A stretch of 49,185 nucleotides of DNA, taken from NCBI GenBank assembly GCA_029260115.1, contig JAJDDW010000002.1, forward strand, positions 1-49,185, written 5' to 3'. Position numbers and translations under genes: made by a program. Positions 2,133 to 47,344 of the stretch are shown in pieces. The notes under the pieces are model-generated. The model was not told the DNA's origin and did not search any database. It saw nothing but the letters and a program-made list of their open reading frames with translations. This stretch comes from Phycisphaerae bacterium (lineage in GTDB: Bacteria > Planctomycetota > Phycisphaerae > UBA1845). Every line of letters begins with the position of its first letter. Position 1 is the stretch's first letter.

Positions 2133-2867
2133 CTACCCGCTTATGACTGATCGCCATGTTTGATCGAGATAATGTTTCACGCTTCTTGCCTGGCCTATCG
2201 TTTTTGGAAGGCAGGCATCATATAGCGAACAGTTATCACACTTTTTTTCATAACGGGCGACTGGCGTTACGCGGGCATCATTCATCATGTGTAACTTATG
2301 GATTAATGATTCGGTGTGTGTGCGAAGTTTATCGTCAAACATGACAGCGTGCCGTCGGCGTGTCTTTCCGTAGAAAATGTATCCCACATTGATCCGGGCA
2401 CTCAACATTTCCTCTAGGCAAAAAGCCTGAGCGCAGAGCTGAACCTCATCGATCGGTTCATTCTTAACTCGGCCATGCTTGTATTCGATGGGAATGGGAT
2501 GCCATCTGCCAGCGGCATTCGATAGCATGATGTTCGCAGCTATCAACGAATCACTTTGGGCCAATGATCCCACCGATTCCTCAGGCATGTTTTCGTTATC
2601 AGAGTCTTCTATTTGATGAAACTCTACGATGTCCGCACGGCCAGATAGCCCTAGCCTAAGTGATCGTAAACGCAATCCACGAGCGATGCGAAAATCGCCG
2701 CGAACTTCGGTTTCGTCGGTATCGGCTCGCTCGTGAAGGATTTTGCCCTCAACTGTTAAACGGTTTTCCATCCACTGGCCTTCGAGATGGATGAGCGCCC
2801 ACTGCCTTTCGCAAAAGGCTAAGTGTTGCAAGGCGGAGATGGGAAGTAAATTGTCTTCAGAGAACAT
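2133..2867 (-). CDS. cas4: CRISPR-associated exonuclease Cas4
   Basis: A RecB-like nuclease of 244 residues from ATG 2867. An in-frame start 18 codons upstream (2921) is possible, but the alignment-friendly N-terminus 'MFSEDNLLPISALQHLAFCERQW' begins here. The four cysteines expected to hold a [4Fe-4S] cluster are visible: one near the N-terminus (Cys19) and three near the C-terminus (Cys210, Cys213 and Cys219, in 'CDNCSLYDAC'). The central part has 'IPIEYKHGR', resembling the nuclease motif with catalytic Glu and Lys. Cas4 trims prespacers and sets PAM choice and orientation. The gene is separated from cas7 by 117 nt containing a stable hairpin. Confidence 0.94.
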   Translation of the reverse strand: MFSEDNLLPISALQHLAFCERQWALIHLEGQWMENRLTVEGKILHERADTDETEVRGDFRIARGLRLRSLRLGLSGRADIVEFHQIEDSDNENMPEESVGSLAQSDSLIAANIMLSNAAGRWHPIPIEYKHGRVKNEPIDEVQLCAQAFCLEEMLSARINVGYIFYGKTRRRHAVMFDDKLRTHTESLIHKLHMMNDARVTPVARYEKKCDNCSLYDACLPKTIGQARSVKHYLDQTWRSVISG

Positions 2868-2931
2868 GGTTAGTGTCTCTCTTTTGGCACTTATGGTCCG
2901 GGATTGAAGATTGTATAACAAGAGGCCGCCG

Positions 2932-2966
2932 CAGCTTGCACGGCATTTTTAAGACCGCGCAAGCTG
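2932..2966 (-). promoter_or_regulatory. Stable hairpin between cas7 and cas4
   Basis: Arms CAGCTTGC (2932-2939) and GCAAGCTG (2959-2966) are perfectly complementary and extend inward by a further CGG/CCG pairing after one mismatch. The hairpin starts just past the cas7 stop and has no T-run. It may stabilise the cas8c-cas7 message or reduce read-through into the adaptation genes. Function is inferred from position only. Confidence 0.45.
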
Positions 2967-2984
2967 AAGCAGGTGGCTCGTTTG

Positions 2985-3953
2985 TTATAGTTTGTCCATG
3001 TCGCGTGGTAATTCTAGTAGTTCCACGCCTTTGGGGACTTTGTCGTTGTGGATGGTGACGTCGTAATCTGAAAATTTACGAGCTACTTCCACGTCATCTT
3101 TTCGCTTGACTTCAAAAACGTCTTCAAAGAGTACCTGGGCCGGGGCGCAGCCTAGCATGGCTTGCTGCACACGTTGGCTATTGTCGCTATCGTTGCCAAT
3201 ATGCTTGAAAACATATAAAGGCTGACGAACGGTCATCACACCTTTGCTAGCTGATCGATCATGCTCGTACATGTTCAAGATAGACTCGAATAGCAGCTTC
3301 AAATCATCGCCCGTAAAGCCGGTTTGCCTAGCTAAATGAGCGCTGATGAAACCTTTGCCAAGGTATAGGCCATAAGGGATGAGGGATTTGCGGCCCATAG
3401 TGCGGAGCTTGCTTTCCTCGTGTTCTGCTTCCCATTTTTCGTGGTCTGACACCTTACCGCCTGGAACAGTTTCGGCCACAGCCATGCGCGTTATAGAAAT
3501 GTCAAGCGGTAGGATTGAATCCACCGACCTAGCAAACGCAATTTGCACTGGTCCACGAACCTGGCCAGCGTTTGCACCTGTAGACATGACAGCTCCGAAT
3601 GTACGAACGTCATAGAAATTTTCGCACATCCATCGGCGAGCCACGTCGACTTTTTCTTTAGTGGCCACCTTCTTTCCTGATTCCACTTCCGGCGTAGCTT
3701 CGTGTGATCGTGCAATCTTAGTATTCAAATTGGTTGCATGTTCAATGAAAATTGCGTTAGGCATTTCGTTTTCACGAACGATTTGAACATAATTACGAAT
3801 GCGCCTTTTGATAGCCACATCAGAAACAATGCCGTGCATATCCTGCGGATCAACCCGTGGCGCGTTACCCGAGTCGGGATCACCGTTAGGATTGCCATTT
3901 TCGCAGTCAAAAAGAAAGAGGAATTCGTATCGGTTTTCAAGAGTATTGGACAT
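2985..3953 (-). CDS. cas7: Type I-C Cascade backbone protein Cas7 (Csd2)
   Basis: A 322-residue Csd2-family Cas7. The N-terminus '[19 protein letters not shown]' is the family's signature RNA-binding start, followed by '[16 protein letters not shown]'. Several copies of Cas7 coat the crRNA spacer to make the helical body of the I-C Cascade. A strong AGGAGA site lies eight bases before ATG 3953. The gene follows cas8c after 54 nt. The hairpin just past its stop could help keep cas7 mRNA abundant, which would suit a subunit needed in many copies. Confidence 0.97.
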
Positions 3954-4007: not shown

Positions 4008-5792
4008 TTATTCGTTCGAGTTATCTTCGGTCTTATCGTTATATCTCTTGGCTTTTTGCTGATAGTAGCCCATAGCAAAAAGAGTCTGCCCTTCCAGCGA
4101 TAGCGTTTTAGGTGGTGCTTGCTTCATCATATCCCACACCTCAGCTAGTTGCATTTCAAACCAATGGCCTAAGCCCCCGTCGATTTTTGGCAAGTGTCCA
4201 ACTTGTGCTTGTCGAACCAAGCGGCCAAGAACGAGACCTGGCGTCGCGCTGGCTGCGGCGTAGTATCGCTGTACAACGCCAGCTCCCACATTAGGCAAAG
4301 CCTTGTGTTGGATGGAAGCTAATATCGCCATGATGCGGCCACATAGATACGCTGGTTCGTGCAGGTCTGTATTAAGTTCTTCCTTCATATCGATTCCTTT
4401 CCGAATGCAATAAGCTTTGAGTAAACCAAGACGGGCATGTCGTTCTGCGTCGTCTTGAATAATGTCAATCTTGACCCTTAACAATGTTTGAGCCATGACC
4501 TGATGAGAAATAGGTTCACGGCGGATAGCTGCGTGCCATAGCACGGCTACTGTTGGTGCGGCTACGTCACCAAGATCACGAACAGTAGCCGCAAGTATAG
4601 CTGCGAACTTATGTGATCGAACCACGCCATTGCCATCCCGTCGAACAATAGCCAAATCACTTATCCACGCATCAATATTCTCCACCAGGTCTTCAAACTG
4701 CCCTTCCATCCAATCTCTGATGACCACTCGTGCGGAGTTGCCTGAGAGGGTTAGCGCGTTGTACCTTGCGTTGGCTAAGTCCGGCCGCTTACCTGAGCGA
4801 ATAGCTGTAAGAAGCATCTTGGCTTTGTTGGTTAGCTGAGCAACGTCGCGTGAGGTTAGTGACGACTGCTCGTCACCCTCTTCAACAATTTCTGAGTCAC
4901 CAAAATCAAGGCCGTGAATAAGAAACTTTAACGGGTCATCCTCTGGTGGAAGCTTTTTATCTCCCACATACCAATAGAGGACTTTCGTACCAGCCATCGT
5001 CTCACCGCGTTCGATCAGCGCATTGAGAGCAGCGACATATTGCTGCGCTGCCTCCTGCGAGAGCGCAGCGTTGCAAGATTGCTCCAGGCCATAGGAACAA
5101 AACGCATCTTCGTTAAAAGAAATCAGCGTCGTATCCACCCTACCACCAACACCGCCTAGCCCTTTTACTTTCGGGTGCGTTCTCGCTGGCTGCGATTCTT
5201 CACCTGTCACCAGACAAAGCATGGGAGCCTCGTCACCGTCGGACTTACGATCGAAAAGTGTTGGAAAATGTCCCCGCCACCAGTCGTGCCAGACATCCTC
5301 ATCTACAAGAATGCGCGGCTCGCCATCTTCTGATGTGATGGCGAAGGTCACGTTATCTGGCGATTTGGCCTTCTTTTCGGGGTCAGCAAGGGCTTCACAG
5401 ATTTCCTTACGCACTTCTTCATCACTAATAGCGTCAGCGATTACTCCAAAAACGCGATCAGCAGAAGCAGCTTCTCTAAGCAGGTTGAGAAAGAACTCGT
5501 GCTTAATCAACAATTTCTTATCTGGGTTATCTTCGCCAAATAGCAGTGCGTACTTAGCGGTATCCACCAAAAATTGTCGCATGGGCGTATCGCCTGCGAA
5601 CTTTAGGTGAGGCGTTTTAACGAATGATCTACCACGACTACGCTTGTCCCCATCATCCTTGAGATCGTGGATGTCGATGAACTTTCCTTTTGGGTTAAAC
5701 AGGATTAGCCAACGCACTGTTTTATTTGGGGTGAAGCCTTCTTCGGCTTCGATTCCCTCCTGGTGGGCGTAAGCTACGAGATTGGCGAGCAT
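4008..5792 (-). CDS. cas8c: Type I-C Cascade large subunit Cas8c (Csd1)
   Basis: A 594-residue Csd1-family protein of usual length, beginning 'MLANLVAYAHQEG' and containing the family's 'MLCLVTGEESQPARTHPKVKG' segment around residues 200-215. Cas8c recognises the PAM and helps open the target DNA so that Cas3 can be recruited. Its C-terminal part in I-C systems also makes an internally translated small Cas11c subunit; I did not find a decisive internal start for it, although several in-frame ATGs exist in the last third. Its ATG overlaps the cas5 stop by one base (TAATG), so translation is probably coupled. Confidence 0.96.
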   Translation of the reverse strand: MLANLVAYAHQEGIEAEEGFTPNKTVRWLILFNPKGKFIDIHDLKDDGDKRSRGRSFVKTPHLKFAGDTPMRQFLVDTAKYALLFGEDNPDKKLLIKHEFFLNLLREAASADRVFGVIADAISDEEVRKEICEALADPEKKAKSPDNVTFAITSEDGEPRILVDEDVWHDWWRGHFPTLFDRKSDGDEAPMLCLVTGEESQPARTHPKVKGLGGVGGRVDTTLISFNEDAFCSYGLEQSCNAALSQEAAQQYVAALNALIERGETMAGTKVLYWYVGDKKLPPEDDPLKFLIHGLDFGDSEIVEEGDEQSSLTSRDVAQLTNKAKMLLTAIRSGKRPDLANARYNALTLSGNSARVVIRDWMEGQFEDLVENIDAWISDLAIVRRDGNGVVRSHKFAAILAATVRDLGDVAAPTVAVLWHAAIRREPISHQVMAQTLLRVKIDIIQDDAERHARLGLLKAYCIRKGIDMKEELNTDLHEPAYLCGRIMAILASIQHKALPNVGAGVVQRYYAAASATPGLVLGRLVRQAQVGHLPKIDGGLGHWFEMQLAEVWDMMKQAPPKTLSLEGQTLFAMGYYQQKAKRYNDKTEDNSNE

Positions 5793-42722: not shown

Positions 42723-43565
42723 TTACCAACGATATCGCCAGCCTATCGAAAATCGATAGTCGGTTTCGACGCTGTTACTGGCTAGCTCTTGGATCGTGGG
42801 TAATTGAAAAGATGCTTCCCAGGTCCATTGTTCTGAGGTGTATTGAATGCCGGGCGAGAGAAAAATCTCGTGCGTGCCGTCGGTATTATATCGGCCATTC
42901 ATCTCGGCTACGACGCTCCATTGCGAGAGCGAATTCGCACTAAATCTTTCGGGGAAAATACGATAGGAATACGCAAGATCGTAGCGCAAGGAGTCGACAT
43001 TAAAATTGTCGTCGCCGGTGTTGATCGTGTACACTACGTCAGCATCGAATATTTTTCGGCCATGTTGCCAGGAATAAACCAAGCCTACAATTGGGTCGCA
43101 ACTGTCGCTGGAAAAACTGCTATCGCCGTTGCTAAGGTTCACCCCGAACAGCGCAGCTAAACGCTTAGTCTGCAAAGGACCTTCATCTATTTGCCAGAAA
43201 CGATATTTCAATAACAACGTCGTATCGGTCGGGCCATCACGCCGATCTTCTACGCTACCCTCCCTGCTATTGTAGGCTTTTCGCTCCCGATATACATACG
43301 GCACGTTGACAATCATCGCGAGGTTGGATTCCAATCCTAGTACCACGGCTACGCGGGCAACGGAAGTCTGCACCTCTCTAACATTTCGCGCGCTACCATG
43401 GCCATGGGCGTCGGCGTAGGTGTATTGCATGCGTAACACACCGCCACCTTTGCGGGGCGTGAACGCGACGTCACTGTTGATAGGGCCAGCTATGCATGTT
43501 GATGTTAGTGTGGCAGCCATCAAAAAGGTTAGCGCATGGTTTGCTCGGCATTTAGGATAACGCAT
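42723..43565 (-). CDS. Putative outer-membrane beta-barrel protein
   Basis: A 280-residue exported protein with a signal peptide ending near 'TCIAG'. The mature chain is rich in alternating strands with aromatic residues ('LLLKYRFWQID', 'RYDLAYSYRIF', 'DYRFSIGWRYRW') and ends in Trp after an aromatic pattern, the usual signal of an outer-membrane barrel. It resembles transporter-like barrels of the phenol-degradation MetA type. It lies downstream of and in the same direction as the UxxU lipoprotein gene, 170 bp apart, with a perfect palindrome before its start. A role in metal or organic solute passage is inference from context. Confidence 0.65.
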   Translation of the reverse strand: MRYPKCRANHALTFLMAATLTSTCIAGPINSDVAFTPRKGGGVLRMQYTYADAHGHGSARNVREVQTSVARVAVVLGLESNLAMIVNVPYVYRERKAYNSREGSVEDRRDGPTDTTLLLKYRFWQIDEGPLQTKRLAALFGVNLSNGDSSFSSDSCDPIVGLVYSWQHGRKIFDADVVYTINTGDDNFNVDSLRYDLAYSYRIFPERFSANSLSQWSVVAEMNGRYNTDGTHEIFLSPGIQYTSEQWTWEASFQLPTIQELASNSVETDYRFSIGWRYRW

Positions 43566-43735: not shown

Positions 43736-44101
43736 TTATTTACCGGGTGCGGATGTAAATGTCTCATTTGGCATCTTGAGTTTTACGGGCGTCATGCCAG
43801 CATCAATGATCGCTTGCCATATGGCTTTGGCATCTGGCACGCCGTCCGGGGAGAAGAAAATGGAAACGTCACCAGTATTCAAATCAACATGAGCATTGGC
43901 TACATTTTTGACGCGCTCGACCGAGCGACGAATGCCGAAGGCTCAGCTTGGTCACGTAATGCCGCGGACGAGAATCGAAGCGTTAGCTTTCAAATCAGCA
44001 TGTGCGTGGGTGGGGATTGGTTGGCCGCCGGTCGTAGCGCAACCGCTCAATAAGCTTGAGAATGCTAATGAGGTGGCGAAAAACCTTATTTTGCTATTCA
44101 T
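43736..44101 (-). CDS. Candidate selenoprotein: HMA-domain lipoprotein with a Sec-x-x-Sec motif in place of CxxC
   Basis: ATG 44101 follows AGGAG at eight-base spacing. The frame reads a lipoprotein signal, 'FATSLAFSSLLSGC' (lipobox Cys21), a short linker, then a heavy-metal-associated fold: 'ASILVRGIT', TGA, Pro-Ser, TGA, 'AFGIRRSVERVKNVANAHVD', 'LNTGDVSIFFSPDGV', 'DAGMTPVKL', and a TAA at 43738-43736. The TGAs (43954-43952 and 43945-43943; codons 50 and 53) stand exactly where HMA domains have the two metal-binding cysteines. All else is in frame, giving 121 residues. A SECIS-like hairpin follows the second TGA. I infer selenocysteine at both. HMA proteins bind soft metals such as Cu, Hg, Zn or Cd; Sec would raise affinity for Hg or change redox behaviour. 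Two point mutations in a dead gene are the main alternative. TGA is a normal stop elsewhere in the window. No sel genes are visible here. Confidence 0.8.
43898..43945 (-). promoter_or_regulatory. SECIS-like hairpin following the second TGA
   Basis: In the message, stem CGCUC/GAGCG (43927-43923 with 43918-43914) carries the apical loop GGUC. A lower pairing GCAUU/AAUGU closes an internal loop. Twenty bases separate the second UGA from the loop, and 29 the first. Bacterial SECIS elements lie within the coding region directly after UGA, with a conserved G at the start of a small apical loop about 16-37 nt away; as I recall, the E. coli fdhF element also has a GGUC apical loop. Confidence 0.65.
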
Positions 44102-44250
44102 AACATTTACTCCTAATTATCGACTACTGCTAATCACTTCCTATAGCGTTAAGTGTACGCTCTAACATTATCCTTATCTTTAAGCCTATAGCTGGCGTCC
44201 ACACGGGCTGAAGTCTGCGGCTCATTTTTTTAGTCCCACATGCCACGCAC

Positions 44251-46380
44251 CTAAGCTGTTACTATAGCAGCTTGTGGTTGGGAAGGTGATCGCTTGCCCA
44301 CCATTACGAATCCCATAACCACGGCTCCGCAGCCTATGAATAGCACTGTCCAGGGCAAATGGGCGCCATCTTCAAGTCTAATTCCCAGACGTTCGAATGT
44401 CGTTGGGCTGACAACCGAAATAACCGCTAGCGAATTGTGCAGCGCGTGCGCGATAATCGCTGGCCAAATCGACCGAGACTGCCAACAGAGATAACCCAAC
44501 ATGACGCCTAGCGTAGCGGTTACGATAAATTTGAAAATGAGAAAATGGAAGACACCGAAAATAGCGGCGCTCGCCAAAATTGCCGGCCACTTTCGAGCGG
44601 CCCCGGAAAGCCCTCCCATCAGAAAACCACGGAAAAGTAGTTCCTCGCACACGGCTGGTATGATGGCGATCAGTAGTATCACGCCGACGATTGGCAAGGC
44701 TTGCAAGGTAGCCGCTATCGATTCAGCCTGCGCTGCAACCGCTTGCGGCATACCCAGCAATTGAAACTGAATGAGATTCAATTCATGGGCTGGAACCCAC
44801 ATGCATAGCCCCAACAAAATCGCCGCTGATAGATGCCTTATCGATGGCACTCTGAAAGACAAAGCATGTTTCACGCCCACTTTCCAAAACGCCATAATCA
44901 ATATTGGCATTAGCACGAACATAAGCGGCATAAGCCAAGCGGAAGTTTGCAACAGTCCGACTGCGTTTTCGTTTGGCCCTGGCGATAAGGCTGATTGAAC
45001 AAAAAACCACGCGGGAAACAACAGAGACACATACAACAAGCTCATGGCTACGGATGGTAGGCGGGTTGGCTTGAACAGTTTCCGGGATAGCAACGTTTTC
45101 AACGAACCAGTATCCGCAAAAACGACTGACTCTTTCCCGAATAACGCAGCCGCAATCGCCACAGCGGCCCCGGCGTATAGGGTCGTGGAAAACAGCACCG
45201 TCAACAGATGCCCAACGGGTACGGGTGCCCCCAACAACAACTCCCTCGACAGCAGCACCATATTCCCAACCGGCAGTACCAACATCACGCCTTCTAATCG
45301 TGCCGCCGGCAAGGCAGCCATCCCGCCTGGCAACAGGGCCGCGAGAATAACGGGCGTGACATAGTTTTGCGCTTCCTTAAATGTCCGCGCAAAGCTACAC
45401 ACGGCTAACATCATAGCTGACATGAGCACGGCGAATGGAATTAAACAGACAAGAATCAGCAGCATCGTCGCCAACGGTAGCCCCTGGCCACTGGTTGCGA
45501 TGAGCATATCAAAACCACCGAAGTATACCGTCGCCGTGACGGATGCGAGATTTAGGGTGGCCCCCATGATGGCTACGGTCGTCACGACAAGAAATTTACC
45601 GACGACCAAATCGATCACCGGCACAGGGCAGACCATCAGCGACTCGAGCGTCCCGCGCTCTCTTTCACCGGCGGTCAAGTCGATAGCCGGATATATGGCT
45701 CCGGTAATGGTCATTAGAATTAAAATCAACGGCAAAATTTGCCCTAGAATTGATTGCGGGGCTGACAAATTCACGTATTCAATTGCGAAGGGCTGATCGA
45801 AATAAGTGGGCAATGCCGCTCGCTGCTTACGCTGTTCCACTAAGCGATTGCTGAGGCGCTCGAACATATCTTGAAGGCGCCCTGTCACATATTGGCCACG
45901 AACTTCCGCCTTATCCGACAAAATGGTCACGCCATTTTGTTGGTCGATCGCTTTTAGAAATTCGTTCGAATTAAACACAATGCCTACATGGATCGCACGC
46001 TCGCGAATGTTAATCTGCAGCGCTTCTTGAGTCTTGATTGGAATTATTTTAACTAAATCAACCAACGGGGCTGCATCTTTTTTATCATCAGAATCAGATT
46101 CCGCGTTCTCGTCGGCCATCTTTTCCTGAGACACCAGTTTCGCATCCCATTGGAGCATATATTCCAAAAGGTTCTGCTGATCGCGTCCTACGACTCCGAT
46201 GGTATATTTCTCTTCGTCCAGCGACGCGGCTTGAATTGACACGGCCTGTAGCGAACCGACCATCAATAGCGGGTACAATACGATGGGCACGACGATCATA
46301 GCGATCAGCGTGCGACGGTCCCGCAGGATGTCAATCAACTCTTTTTGATATACGGTGCGAATGCGATGTACCGAACTCAT
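44251..46380 (-). CDS. ABC-2 type permease fused to a CPBP intramembrane protease
   Basis: A 709-residue membrane protein with two parts. Residues 1-400 are a NatB-like ABC-2 permease: 'VYQKELIDILRDRRTLIAMI', a large external loop (about 50-200), then the membrane core with 'AGERERGTLESLMVCPV'. Residues about 500-690 are a CPBP (CAAX-protease-like) domain with its signature Glu pair and Arg in 'EELLFRGFL', His in 'FGVFHFLIF', and 'AHALHNSLAV'. All metal and catalytic residues appear present, so the protease part should be active. It ends the operon begun by the ATPase, with a four-base start overlap (46377-46380). The fusion occurs in planctomycetes; the substrate is unknown. Confidence 0.88.
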   Translation of the reverse strand: MSSVHRIRTVYQKELIDILRDRRTLIAMIVVPIVLYPLLMVGSLQAVSIQAASLDEEKYTIGVVGRDQQNLLEYMLQWDAKLVSQEKMADENAESDSDDKKDAAPLVDLVKIIPIKTQEALQINIRERAIHVGIVFNSNEFLKAIDQQNGVTILSDKAEVRGQYVTGRLQDMFERLSNRLVEQRKQRAALPTYFDQPFAIEYVNLSAPQSILGQILPLILILMTITGAIYPAIDLTAGERERGTLESLMVCPVPVIDLVVGKFLVVTTVAIMGATLNLASVTATVYFGGFDMLIATSGQGLPLATMLLILVCLIPFAVLMSAMMLAVCSFARTFKEAQNYVTPVILAALLPGGMAALPAARLEGVMLVLPVGNMVLLSRELLLGAPVPVGHLLTVLFSTTLYAGAAVAIAAALFGKESVVFADTGSLKTLLSRKLFKPTRLPSVAMSLLYVSLLFPAWFFVQSALSPGPNENAVGLLQTSAWLMPLMFVLMPILIMAFWKVGVKHALSFRVPSIRHLSAAILLGLCMWVPAHELNLIQFQLLGMPQAVAAQAESIAATLQALPIVGVILLIAIIPAVCEELLFRGFLMGGLSGAARKWPAILASAAIFGVFHFLIFKFIVTATLGVMLGYLCWQSRSIWPAIIAHALHNSLAVISVVSPTTFERLGIRLEDGAHLPWTVLFIGCGAVVMGFVMVGKRSPSQPQAAIVTA

Positions 46381-47141
46381 GCGATAGCCGCCTCCACCTT
46401 TTCGCTTGCGTGTATAATTTTAAGAAAGATGTTACTCAGTCGCTGTTCATCAGTTGAGGCCCGCAACGATTCGAGCGTTCCCTCTGCGACTAACGTGCCG
46501 TCGTAAATGAGGCCGATGTTGTCACACATGTCCTCGGCTTCATCTAGGTAGTGGGTAGAAAGAATGATGGTCTTGCCACGATCGCGCTCGCGTTTGATGT
46601 ATTCGAGAATGATTCGATTGCTCAATACATCCAGCCCCAACGTCGGCTCGTCCATAATCAAAATCGGCGGGTCGGCGATCAGCGCTCGGGCAATGTTCAC
46701 CCGTTGCTTTTGGCCAGTAGAAAGCGCCCCGCATCGAAGCGCCGCAAAATCTGTAAGCCCTAGCCACTCGATAAGATGATCCGCCTTATCGAAAGCCTCA
46801 AGCTTATTCATCCCGTGAAGCTGTGCGAAATATACCAGCAATTCTCTTGGTGTCAGCCGCTGATACAGCCCAGTATTCGCCGTCAAAAATCCGAGCACCC
46901 GCTTAACCTCTTGAGGCTGCGTGGCTACATCGTAACCAGCCAACATCGCCCCACCACTCGTAGGAGCCATCAACCCGCTCAGCATCCTCAGTGAGGTGGT
47001 TTTACCGGCTCCATTGGGGCCAAGAAGCCCGTAAATCTGCCCCTCACCCACGCGAAAAGTCAGCCCATCGACCGCTCGTTTCTCTTTTCCGTCAGGCGCG
47101 GGGAAAGTTTTGACCAGATTGTCCGCGATTACCATGTCCAT
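46377..47141 (-). CDS. ABC transporter ATP-binding protein (NatA-like)
   Basis: A 254-residue ATPase from ATG 47141 (ATG 47135 and a distant upstream start at 47231 are alternatives; none has a strong ribosome site). It has Walker A 'GPNGAGKTTSL', signature region 'LSTGQKQRVNIARALI', Walker B 'ILIMDEPTLGLDV' and the switch His in 'ILSTHYLDE'. It drives the permease/protease fusion that follows. NatA/NatB-type pumps export sodium or other small solutes, but substrate cannot be called here. Confidence 0.92.
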   Translation of the reverse strand: MDMVIADNLVKTFPAPDGKEKRAVDGLTFRVGEGQIYGLLGPNGAGKTTSLRMLSGLMAPTSGGAMLAGYDVATQPQEVKRVLGFLTANTGLYQRLTPRELLVYFAQLHGMNKLEAFDKADHLIEWLGLTDFAALRCGALSTGQKQRVNIARALIADPPILIMDEPTLGLDVLSNRIILEYIKRERDRGKTIILSTHYLDEAEDMCDNIGLIYDGTLVAEGTLESLRASTDEQRLSNIFLKIIHASEKVEAAIA

Positions 47142-47344
47142 ATTGATACATTGTCGGCTAATAAACAGGGAAACGGCTATCGAAACACCAATTCCTCGAC
47201 ATCGTTGGCCGCTTTTGATATTGGTACGCACCCTGCAGGTGATTGGTGCGATTACTTTGGTATCGCCAACACTGGCGGCGCGTTACGATAAGAATAATTG
47301 TTAAAATTGTCACAACATTGGCATAAGTTTCATCTAAAGGATAC

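What the first reader, a model, noticed from the sequence alone, without database searches (positions are those of the whole stretch)
43736..44101. HMA lipoprotein whose metal-binding CxxC is encoded as TGA-x-x-TGA (Sec-x-x-Sec)
Seen: one frame from a good ribosome site through a lipoprotein signal and a full HMA fold is broken only by two TGA codons, at exactly the two CxxC cysteine positions; everything downstream stays in frame and ends at TAA. Known: TGA is decoded as selenocysteine when a SECIS hairpin follows, and Sec nearly always replaces redox or metal Cys. Inference: a UxxU metal-binding selenolipoprotein. Two nonsense changes hitting just these codons by chance is unlikely. Surface-anchored UxxU in an HMA fold would be an unusual soft-metal (Hg, Cu, Ag) trap or redox centre.
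Basis: partly seen in the sequence, partly recalled or inferred. Interest (0 to 1): 0.95.

Follow-up and report, generated by a model that had tools for sequence, protein, structure and literature searches.

The report
Selenium-armed metal-binding lipoprotein with membrane partner
In a planctomycete bacterium, a small gene for a metal-binding-type protein carries the stop codon UGA at both of its metal-gripping positions; relatives keep those codons next to a conserved RNA hairpin and a gene for a predicted outer-membrane barrel, so the two codons likely insert selenocysteine and the protein is predicted to grip soft metals such as mercury at the cell envelope.

Summary
Confirmed and extended. 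The gene is on the minus strand (44101 to 43736): a 121-aa lipoprotein-type HMA protein whose CxxC is TGA-x-x-TGA. Its genome has selA, selB, selD and tRNA-Sec(UCA). Of 16 intact genes in its order (window included), 13 read UxxU and 3 CxxU. All 16 have a GGUC hairpin 20 nt after the second TGA. Its five codons resist synonymous change (identical-codon fraction 0.93 against 0.31±0.03 shuffled), and one relative keeps the stem while changing amino acids. Both TGAs very likely encode Sec through one shared SECIS. A predicted outer-membrane barrel gene (PF13557) follows in 15 of 15 loci. Across the phylum a sister subfamily has UxxU with two tandem covarying hairpins, again beside the barrel gene, and one fusion with four TGAs plus thioredoxin. 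Four loci also hold MerT fusions, but the window's genome gave no MerT. UxxU metal-binding selenoproteins are already catalogued (NF041115); this scores far below that cut-off. New variant: a lipid-anchored, barrel-paired UxxU metal trap. The metal and the barrel's role are inferred.

The parts
43736..44101 (-). Predicted selenoprotein gene, 121 aa plus TAA: lipoprotein leader and HMA domain with U50-P-S-U53
   Evidence: Translation with TGA=U; Pfam HMA 31.2 bits; relatives
44110..44114 (-). AGGAG, ribosome-binding-site-like
   Evidence: Sequence
44039..44101 (-). Predicted lipoprotein signal, residues 1-21, lipobox LSGC with Cys21
   Evidence: Lipobox-like motif printed for 16 of 16 genes by a permissive pattern; G20 and C21 invariant in 14 aligned rows
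43952..43954 (-). First TGA, predicted Sec50
   Evidence: TGA in 13 of 16 genes, TGT/TGC in 3
43943..43945 (-). Second TGA, predicted Sec53
   Evidence: TGA in 16 of 16 genes
43914..43927 (-). Predicted shared SECIS hairpin CGCUC-GGUC-GAGCG; loop at 43919-43922
43775..43981 (-). HMA fold, residues 41-109
   Evidence: AlphaFold2, Foldseek
42723..43565 (-). Predicted outer-membrane beta-barrel protein, 280 aa (PF13557 Phenol_MetA_deg), likely partner
   Evidence: Pfam 40.7 bits, cut-off 22; downstream, same strand, in 15 of 15 loci of this subfamily

Best explanation
The gene carries UGA at both metal-ligand positions of a predicted HMA fold, beside a hairpin and a predicted outer-membrane-barrel gene that its relatives conserve, so it likely makes a lipid-anchored selenoprotein with a Sec-x-x-Sec site that would capture soft metals (most likely Hg(II), otherwise Cu(I)) in the periplasm and work with the barrel. 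Steps: (1) shown: two in-frame UGAs, a full set of Sec genes in the genome, Sec/Cys exchange at both positions in relatives, and a hairpin under RNA-level constraint. (2) inferred: SelB and tRNA-Sec decode both UGAs from this one hairpin, because its GGUC loop lies 20 nt after the second and 29 nt after the first UGA, both inside the published 16-37 nt range. (3) predicted: the protein is exported and lipidated at Cys21, and the two selenolates bind one soft metal ion as the CxxC of MerP or CopZ does, only more tightly. (4) inferred from gene order alone: the metal is exchanged with, or kept out through, the co-encoded barrel; thioredoxin domains fused to or encoded near some relatives would keep the selenols reduced.
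For: Sec machinery: selB 367 bits and selA 560 bits side by side, selD 372 bits, tRNA-Sec with anticodon UCA 61.3 bits. Conservation: 13 UxxU and 3 CxxU among 16 intact genes of the order, and CPLC homologues beside the same barrel gene. Hairpin: GGUC loop at the same place in 16 of 16; codon-level constraint 0.928 against 0.306, sd 0.030, 0 of 2000 shuffles; L143 changes RSVER to SSVGL but keeps the stem. Fold: HMA. Partner: barrel gene in 15 of 15 loci and in 17 of 18 phylum regions fetched. Metal: zf_CopZ-MerT-HMA fusions near the gene in 4 of 15 loci and MerR regulators in three of those four (MerR not looked for in the fourth).
Against: No direct proof of Sec. selB is in 97 of 114 genomes of the order, so its presence does not single out this gene; of the 15 genomes with the gene it was found in 12, and it was not found in G113, which holds a sister-type gene. 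Folding energy is borderline in the window (-6.7 kcal/mol over 17 nt, -8.9 over 23 nt) and 21 and 12 of 200 shuffles fold as well; a 66-nt fold does not show the hairpin. Formal covariation in this subfamily is weak: one double-sided change, reached by 75 of 500 shuffles. No MerT in the window's genome (where no control rang either), and the window's own neighbours are a CDF cation-efflux gene and an ABC transporter. One CPLC locus of five (L149) showed no barrel gene. The barrel's role rests on position only.
Confidence: 0.75

Rival explanations
1. Both UGAs encode Sec, but the Sec-x-x-Sec pair is a redox centre (a diselenide/diselenol couple) rather than a metal site.
For: One relative fuses two UxxU HMA domains to a thioredoxin; two loci encode a separate UxxU HMA-thioredoxin protein (L133 by Pfam; L130 by reading and weaker NCBIfam matches) and LLSPTUxxC proteins lie in two loci. 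Most prokaryotic selenoproteins are described as redox proteins (abstract of PMC9312934, search listing only).
Against: The fold is a metallochaperone fold with the ligand pair at the metal position; CopZ and MerP models match 10-14 of 14 members, below cut-offs; MerT and MerR neighbours in some loci.
Confidence: 0.2
2. UGA is not Sec here but is read as Cys, Trp or another residue by a changed code or a suppressor tRNA.
For: The frame stays open if TGA is read as any residue.
Against: TGA is the terminal stop in 5 of the 16 genes themselves (L133, L139, L140, L141, L142); Cys codons stand at the first site in three relatives; the Sec set and a tRNA-Sec are present; a SECIS-like hairpin is conserved.
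Confidence: 0.02
3. A pseudogene or sequencing error with two nonsense changes.
For: L141 has a second copy with one base missing between the TGAs, so decay does occur in the family.
Against: The same two TGAs recur in 13 genes of the order, at 26-76% identity to the window's protein over the 13 relatives aligned, and in ten more genes elsewhere in the order and phylum; the hairpin codons are under synonymous constraint.
Confidence: 0.01

Closest known systems
NF041115 UxxU_metal_bind, metal-binding (seleno)protein (NCBIfam); listed with UxxU and two Sec in the review PMC13188914 (passages seen), credited there to Zhang and Gladyshev 2007, which is not held
   Same: HMA-like small protein with Sec at both ligand positions; best NCBIfam match of the window's protein and matched by 14 of 14 members
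   Different: 35.2 bits against a cut-off of 95; here a lipoprotein leader, a paired barrel gene and a planctomycete-specific hairpin
MerP (TIGR02052), periplasmic mercury-binding protein; a Sec MerP is listed in the 2008 GOS survey PMC2398784 (passages)
   Same: Predicted export, HMA fold, ligand pair at the same place
   Different: 27.4 bits against 92.55; lipid-anchored by prediction, Sec ligands, and no MerT found in the window's genome
NF045683 MerT/CopZ fusion-like heavy metal transport selenoprotein
   Same: HMA module in a selenoprotein linked by name to heavy-metal transport
   Different: 19.2 bits against 375; the present protein has no MerT part
CopZ/Atx1 copper chaperones (NF033795, NF047957, TIGR00003)
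   Same: Same fold; first Foldseek match is a CopZ
   Different: Exported and lipid-anchored by prediction; Sec ligands; scores below their cut-offs

Membership tests
Selenoproteins | In-frame UGA aligned with Cys in homologues | tested here: met
   3 CxxU genes at the first site; CPLC homologues have Cys at both
Selenoproteins | Bacterial SECIS: loop 3-9 nt with G in the first two places, stem 4-16 bp, spacing 16-37 nt (model from PMC13188914) | tested here: met
   GGUC loop, 5-bp stem, 20 nt from the second and 29 nt from the first UGA, in 16 of 16
Selenoproteins | SECIS minimum free energy of -7.5 kcal/mol or lower (same model) | tested here: inconclusive
   Window -6.7 over 17 nt, -8.9 over 23 nt; four relatives -8.9 to -11.3
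Selenoproteins | selA, selB, selC, selD in the genome | tested here: met
Selenoproteins | Sec detected in the protein | not testable with these tools
   Needs 75Se labelling or mass spectrometry
HMA domain (PF00403) | Score above the Pfam cut-off | tested here: met
   31.2 against 24.8 bits with C at the U positions
NF041115 UxxU_metal_bind | Score above the curated cut-off | tested here: not met
   35.2 against 95 bits
MerP (TIGR02052) | Score above the curated cut-off | tested here: not met
   27.4 against 92.55 bits
NF045683 MerT_CopZ_Se | Score above the curated cut-off | tested here: not met
   19.2 against 375 bits
Bacterial lipoproteins | Lipobox at the end of a signal peptide | tested here: met
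   LSGC; lipobox-like motif in 16 of 16 by a permissive pattern. Lipidation itself not testable here
PF13557 Phenol_MetA_deg (partner gene) | Score above the Pfam cut-off | tested here: met
   40.7 against 22 bits; that members are outer-membrane barrels is recalled, not from a call

The most novel reading that the evidence does not exclude
Planctomycetes have a phylum-wide, selenium-based metal-capture system at the cell envelope: a lipid-anchored Sec-x-x-Sec HMA protein that works with its own dedicated outer-membrane barrel, with a fused form carrying four Sec and a thioredoxin. The family has found two ways to decode two Sec codons nine bases apart: one hairpin shared by both UGAs, or two tandem hairpins of which, by the 16-37 nt spacing rule, the near one can serve only the first UGA and the far one only the second.
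Probability: 0.45. Interest if true: 0.85.

Novelty: new variant of a known kind. Interest (0 to 1): 0.72.

Why it matters
Most known prokaryotic selenoproteins are thought to be redox enzymes. A conserved Sec-x-x-Sec on a metallochaperone fold, in the same gene module as Cys versions, makes a natural test of what selenium adds to metal binding. The module points to a metal path at the planctomycete envelope whose barrel bears only an uninformative phenol-pathway family name. The two subfamilies offer a comparison of how two Sec codons nine bases apart can be decoded, with one hairpin or two. The genes are also easily lost in annotation: one database entry, a 63-aa 'heavy-metal-associated domain-containing protein', is only the piece after the second TGA.

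Tried and rejected
Protein-database search with the single protein: nothing at E <= 0.001. With the 14-row alignment: six hits, of which P0002, P0003 and P0005 are 63-70-aa pieces that begin after the second TGA. Protein back-translation scan of genome contigs: 56 pattern matches, no relative confirmed. Rfam scan of the locus: one sub-threshold match to a snoRNA family (19.1 bits, gathering score 90), taken as chance. Folding 66 nt from the first TGA does not give the hairpin; it appears in the 46-nt stretch from the second TGA.

selB co-occurrence as a test: rejected as uninformative, since 97 of 114 genomes of the order have it. Pattern search over 392 genomes of the phylum with up to 2 mismatches: 26 genomes matched; among the places listed only the window's own had none, and I took the rest as chance without examining them. 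A protein tree of 21 rows was poorly resolved (4 of 18 inner branches well supported) and could not say whether Cys or Sec came first. Promoter and terminator scan: no more than shuffles give. MerT in the own genome: none, but no control rang. A literature search for bacterial selenoproteins with two Sec and tandem SECIS found no paper with all its terms.

Dropped before counts: the frameshifted second copy in L141 (not among the 16 genes); L184 (UAVC, no lipobox seen, did not fit the register) and L170 (hairpin in another place) were left out of the tandem-hairpin alignment. Of the 45 phylum places listed I fetched 18, chosen mostly because they carry TGAs, so their make-up is not a sample.

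Full report
What is there. The finding's coordinates are right, but the gene lies on the minus strand, 44101 to 43736. Read with TGA as U it gives 121 residues, broken only by U50 and U53, then TAA. AGGAG precedes the ATG. The leader ends in LSGC, a lipobox. With Cys in place of U, Pfam HMA scores 31.2 bits against a cut-off of 24.8. AlphaFold2 on a 14-row alignment gives the beta-alpha-beta-beta-alpha-beta order with block-mean pLDDT 94-98 over residues 41-120. Foldseek's first PDB match is a CopZ chaperone and MerP is eighth.

Machinery. The window's genome (4.54 Mb, 122 contigs, 94% complete) has selB (367 bits) and selA (560 bits) side by side, selD (372 bits) and a tRNA-Sec (61.3 bits, gathering score 47) with anticodon UCA. 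Its selD carries an in-frame TGA followed by a hairpin with a GUU loop. This shows that the cell has the parts. It does not single out this gene, because 97 of 114 genomes of the order have selB. Of the 15 genomes with the gene, selB was found in 12; the three without (G007, G039, G062) are drafts at most 85% complete. G113, which holds a sister-type gene and is 75% complete, also lacked it.

Relatives in the order. A search of 100 relatives, then of the 114 genomes of the order with an alignment, led to 16 intact genes at 15 loci in 15 genomes, the window included. Thirteen read UxxU and three CxxU; the second TGA is present in 16 of 16. The two same-genus genes are 74% and 67% identical over their matches. 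L141 has a second copy with one base missing between the TGAs. TGA is also used as the terminal stop in 5 of the 16 genes. A scan of one genome for each of 84,980 species for TGH-N6-TGA-N15-CGYTCGGTCGAGCG returned 17 stretches. Fourteen, from 13 planctomycete records, are this gene on translation; the other three (records named Mycobacterium, Labedella and Clostridia) do not resemble it.

The hairpin. Fifteen bases after the second TGA each of the 16 genes has a 5-bp stem closing a GGUC loop. The loop starts 20 nt after the second TGA and 29 nt after the first. The review PMC13188914 (passages) gives the bacterial SECIS model as a 3-9 nt loop, a 4-16 bp stem, G in the first two loop positions, 16-37 nt spacing and an energy of -7.5 kcal/mol or lower. 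One hairpin therefore fits both codons. Energy is borderline in the window (-6.7 over 17 nt, -8.9 over 23 nt; 21 and 12 of 200 shuffles fold as well); four relatives give -8.9 to -11.3. At protein level the hairpin reads RSVER, but the constraint is on the RNA. The five codons are the five most codon-conserved of 34 testable columns, and the identical-codon fraction is 0.928 against 0.306 (sd 0.030) when synonymous codons are shuffled within genes, 0 of 2000. In L143 the protein reads SSVGL, yet the stem persists through a C-G to A-U double change and a U-A to U-G change. Formal covariation is modest because the hairpin hardly varies: 95.8% of cells paired (29 of 500 shuffles reach it), one double-sided change (75 of 500), covariation score reached by 21 of 500. 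The four CPLC homologues printed lack this sequence.

A sister subfamily across the phylum. An alignment search of 392 genomes of the phylum matched 42 at E <= 1e-12. I fetched 18 of the 45 listed places, chosen mostly for their TGAs. Nine hold UxxU genes (L171-L179), two CxxU (L170, L183), two UxxC (L184, L185) and five CxxC. L144, in the window's own order, is UxxU of the same type. By eye the leaders of L170-L179, L183, L185 and L144 end in a lipobox-like Cys; L184's does not. In 12 of these genes (A4; L170 and L184 left out) two hairpins follow the ligand codons: 92.7% of cells pair and 23 cells are changed on both sides, against 8.1 (sd 2.4) in shuffles, 0 of 500. The number of pairs with such a change (6; 170 of 500) and of further pair types (17; 120 of 500) are not exceptional. 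RNAalifold finds both helices unprompted. The near loop lies 21 nt after the first ligand codon and 12 nt after the second; the far loop lies 32 nt after the second and 41 nt after the first. By the 16-37 nt rule each hairpin can serve only one of two TGAs (inference). In the 3-nt register the far loop begins with G in 12 of 12, and the near loop has G in its first two places in 5 of 12, so the near hairpin is the less classical one. L183, which has Cys at the first site, has the poorest near stem (5 of 8 pairs); L185, which has Cys at the second, keeps 7 of 8 in both. These are single cases.

The partner gene. A PF13557 gene (window 42723-43565, 40.7 bits, cut-off 22) has a homologue downstream on the same strand in 15 of 15 loci, truncated by a contig end in one and with one internal TGA in another (L130). 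It is also near four of the five CPLC loci fetched (not L149) and, at 26-28% identity, near L144. Among the 18 phylum regions 17 have a homologue (not L184). In the 13 loci tabulated it is on the same strand: downstream in L170, and upstream in 12. For 11 of these the printed gap from match end to ATG is 24-138 nt. For L179 one search took a wrong start, and the coordinates give 23 nt. That PF13557 proteins are outer-membrane barrels is recalled, not from a call.

Hints of function. Four of the 15 loci (L130, L133, L134, L143) hold a zf_CopZ-MerT-HMA fusion above Pfam cut-offs; L130, L133 and L134 also hold MerR-type regulators, not looked for in L143. L133 encodes a further UxxU HMA-thioredoxin protein by Pfam; L130 has a similar one by reading and by below-cut-off NCBIfam matches. 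L174 joins a UPMU HMA domain, a UMAU HMA domain and a thioredoxin in one frame with four internal TGAs. L133 and L139 encode LLSPTUxxC proteins, possibly further selenoproteins; the L139 one had no Pfam or NCBIfam match. In the window and its two congeners the neighbours are instead a CDF cation-efflux gene and an ABC transporter, and no MerT was found in the window's genome (no control rang). Mercury is therefore the family-level favourite, not a result for this species.

What is known. NCBIfam has NF041115, a UxxU metal-binding (seleno)protein, the best match here at 35.2 bits against a cut-off of 95. The review lists it with two Sec, and the 2008 GOS survey lists a Sec MerP (passages). Passages of two more papers on bacterial and planctomycete selenoproteins did not mention this protein. 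Nine literature searches listed no title or abstract opening about it; most listed papers were not opened, and subscription papers are mostly not covered. I file it as a new variant of a known kind: it would work like MerP or CopZ and is a member of neither by score.

Noticed in passing
L174 (G133:C96), minus strand, 2723-3922: One 400-aa frame joins two UxxU HMA domains and a thioredoxin domain (WCAPC), with four internal TGAs: a possible four-Sec fusion protein.
   Followed up: partly
L171-L179, L144, L183, L185, first 55 bases from the first ligand codon: Two tandem covarying hairpins follow the ligand codons; by the spacing rule each can serve only one TGA, unlike the single hairpin of the window's subfamily.
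   Followed up: partly
L133 minus strand near 3394 and 2374; L139 minus strand near 4889: LLSPTUxxC proteins, possibly thioredoxin-like selenoproteins, near the HMA/barrel module; the L139 one matched no Pfam or NCBIfam model.
   Followed up: partly
L130:10126-10878 and L133:4117-4902: Separate UxxU HMA proteins with a thioredoxin-like C-terminal part in the same clusters as the lipoprotein gene.
   Followed up: partly
L130:6632-7411: The barrel gene has one in-frame TGA at a position where the L133 homologue has Arg; a nonsense change or an assembly error seems likelier than Sec.
   Followed up: no
L141 near 3320-3360: A second copy of the lipoprotein gene has one base missing between the two TGAs, and a U-G instead of C-G pair closes its hairpin loop.
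   Followed up: no
L146, L147, L148: The CPLC homologues end in a Cys-rich tail that the UxxU genes lack.
   Followed up: no
window 44251-46380 (-): A 709-aa protein joins ABC-2 permease domains and a CAAX-protease (Rce1-like) domain, next to an ABC ATPase gene at 46377-47231; conserved in the two same-genus loci.
   Followed up: no
L020 (own selD): selD itself carries an in-frame TGA (SCAGU) followed by a hairpin with a GUU loop, so it is probably a selenoprotein too.
   Followed up: partly
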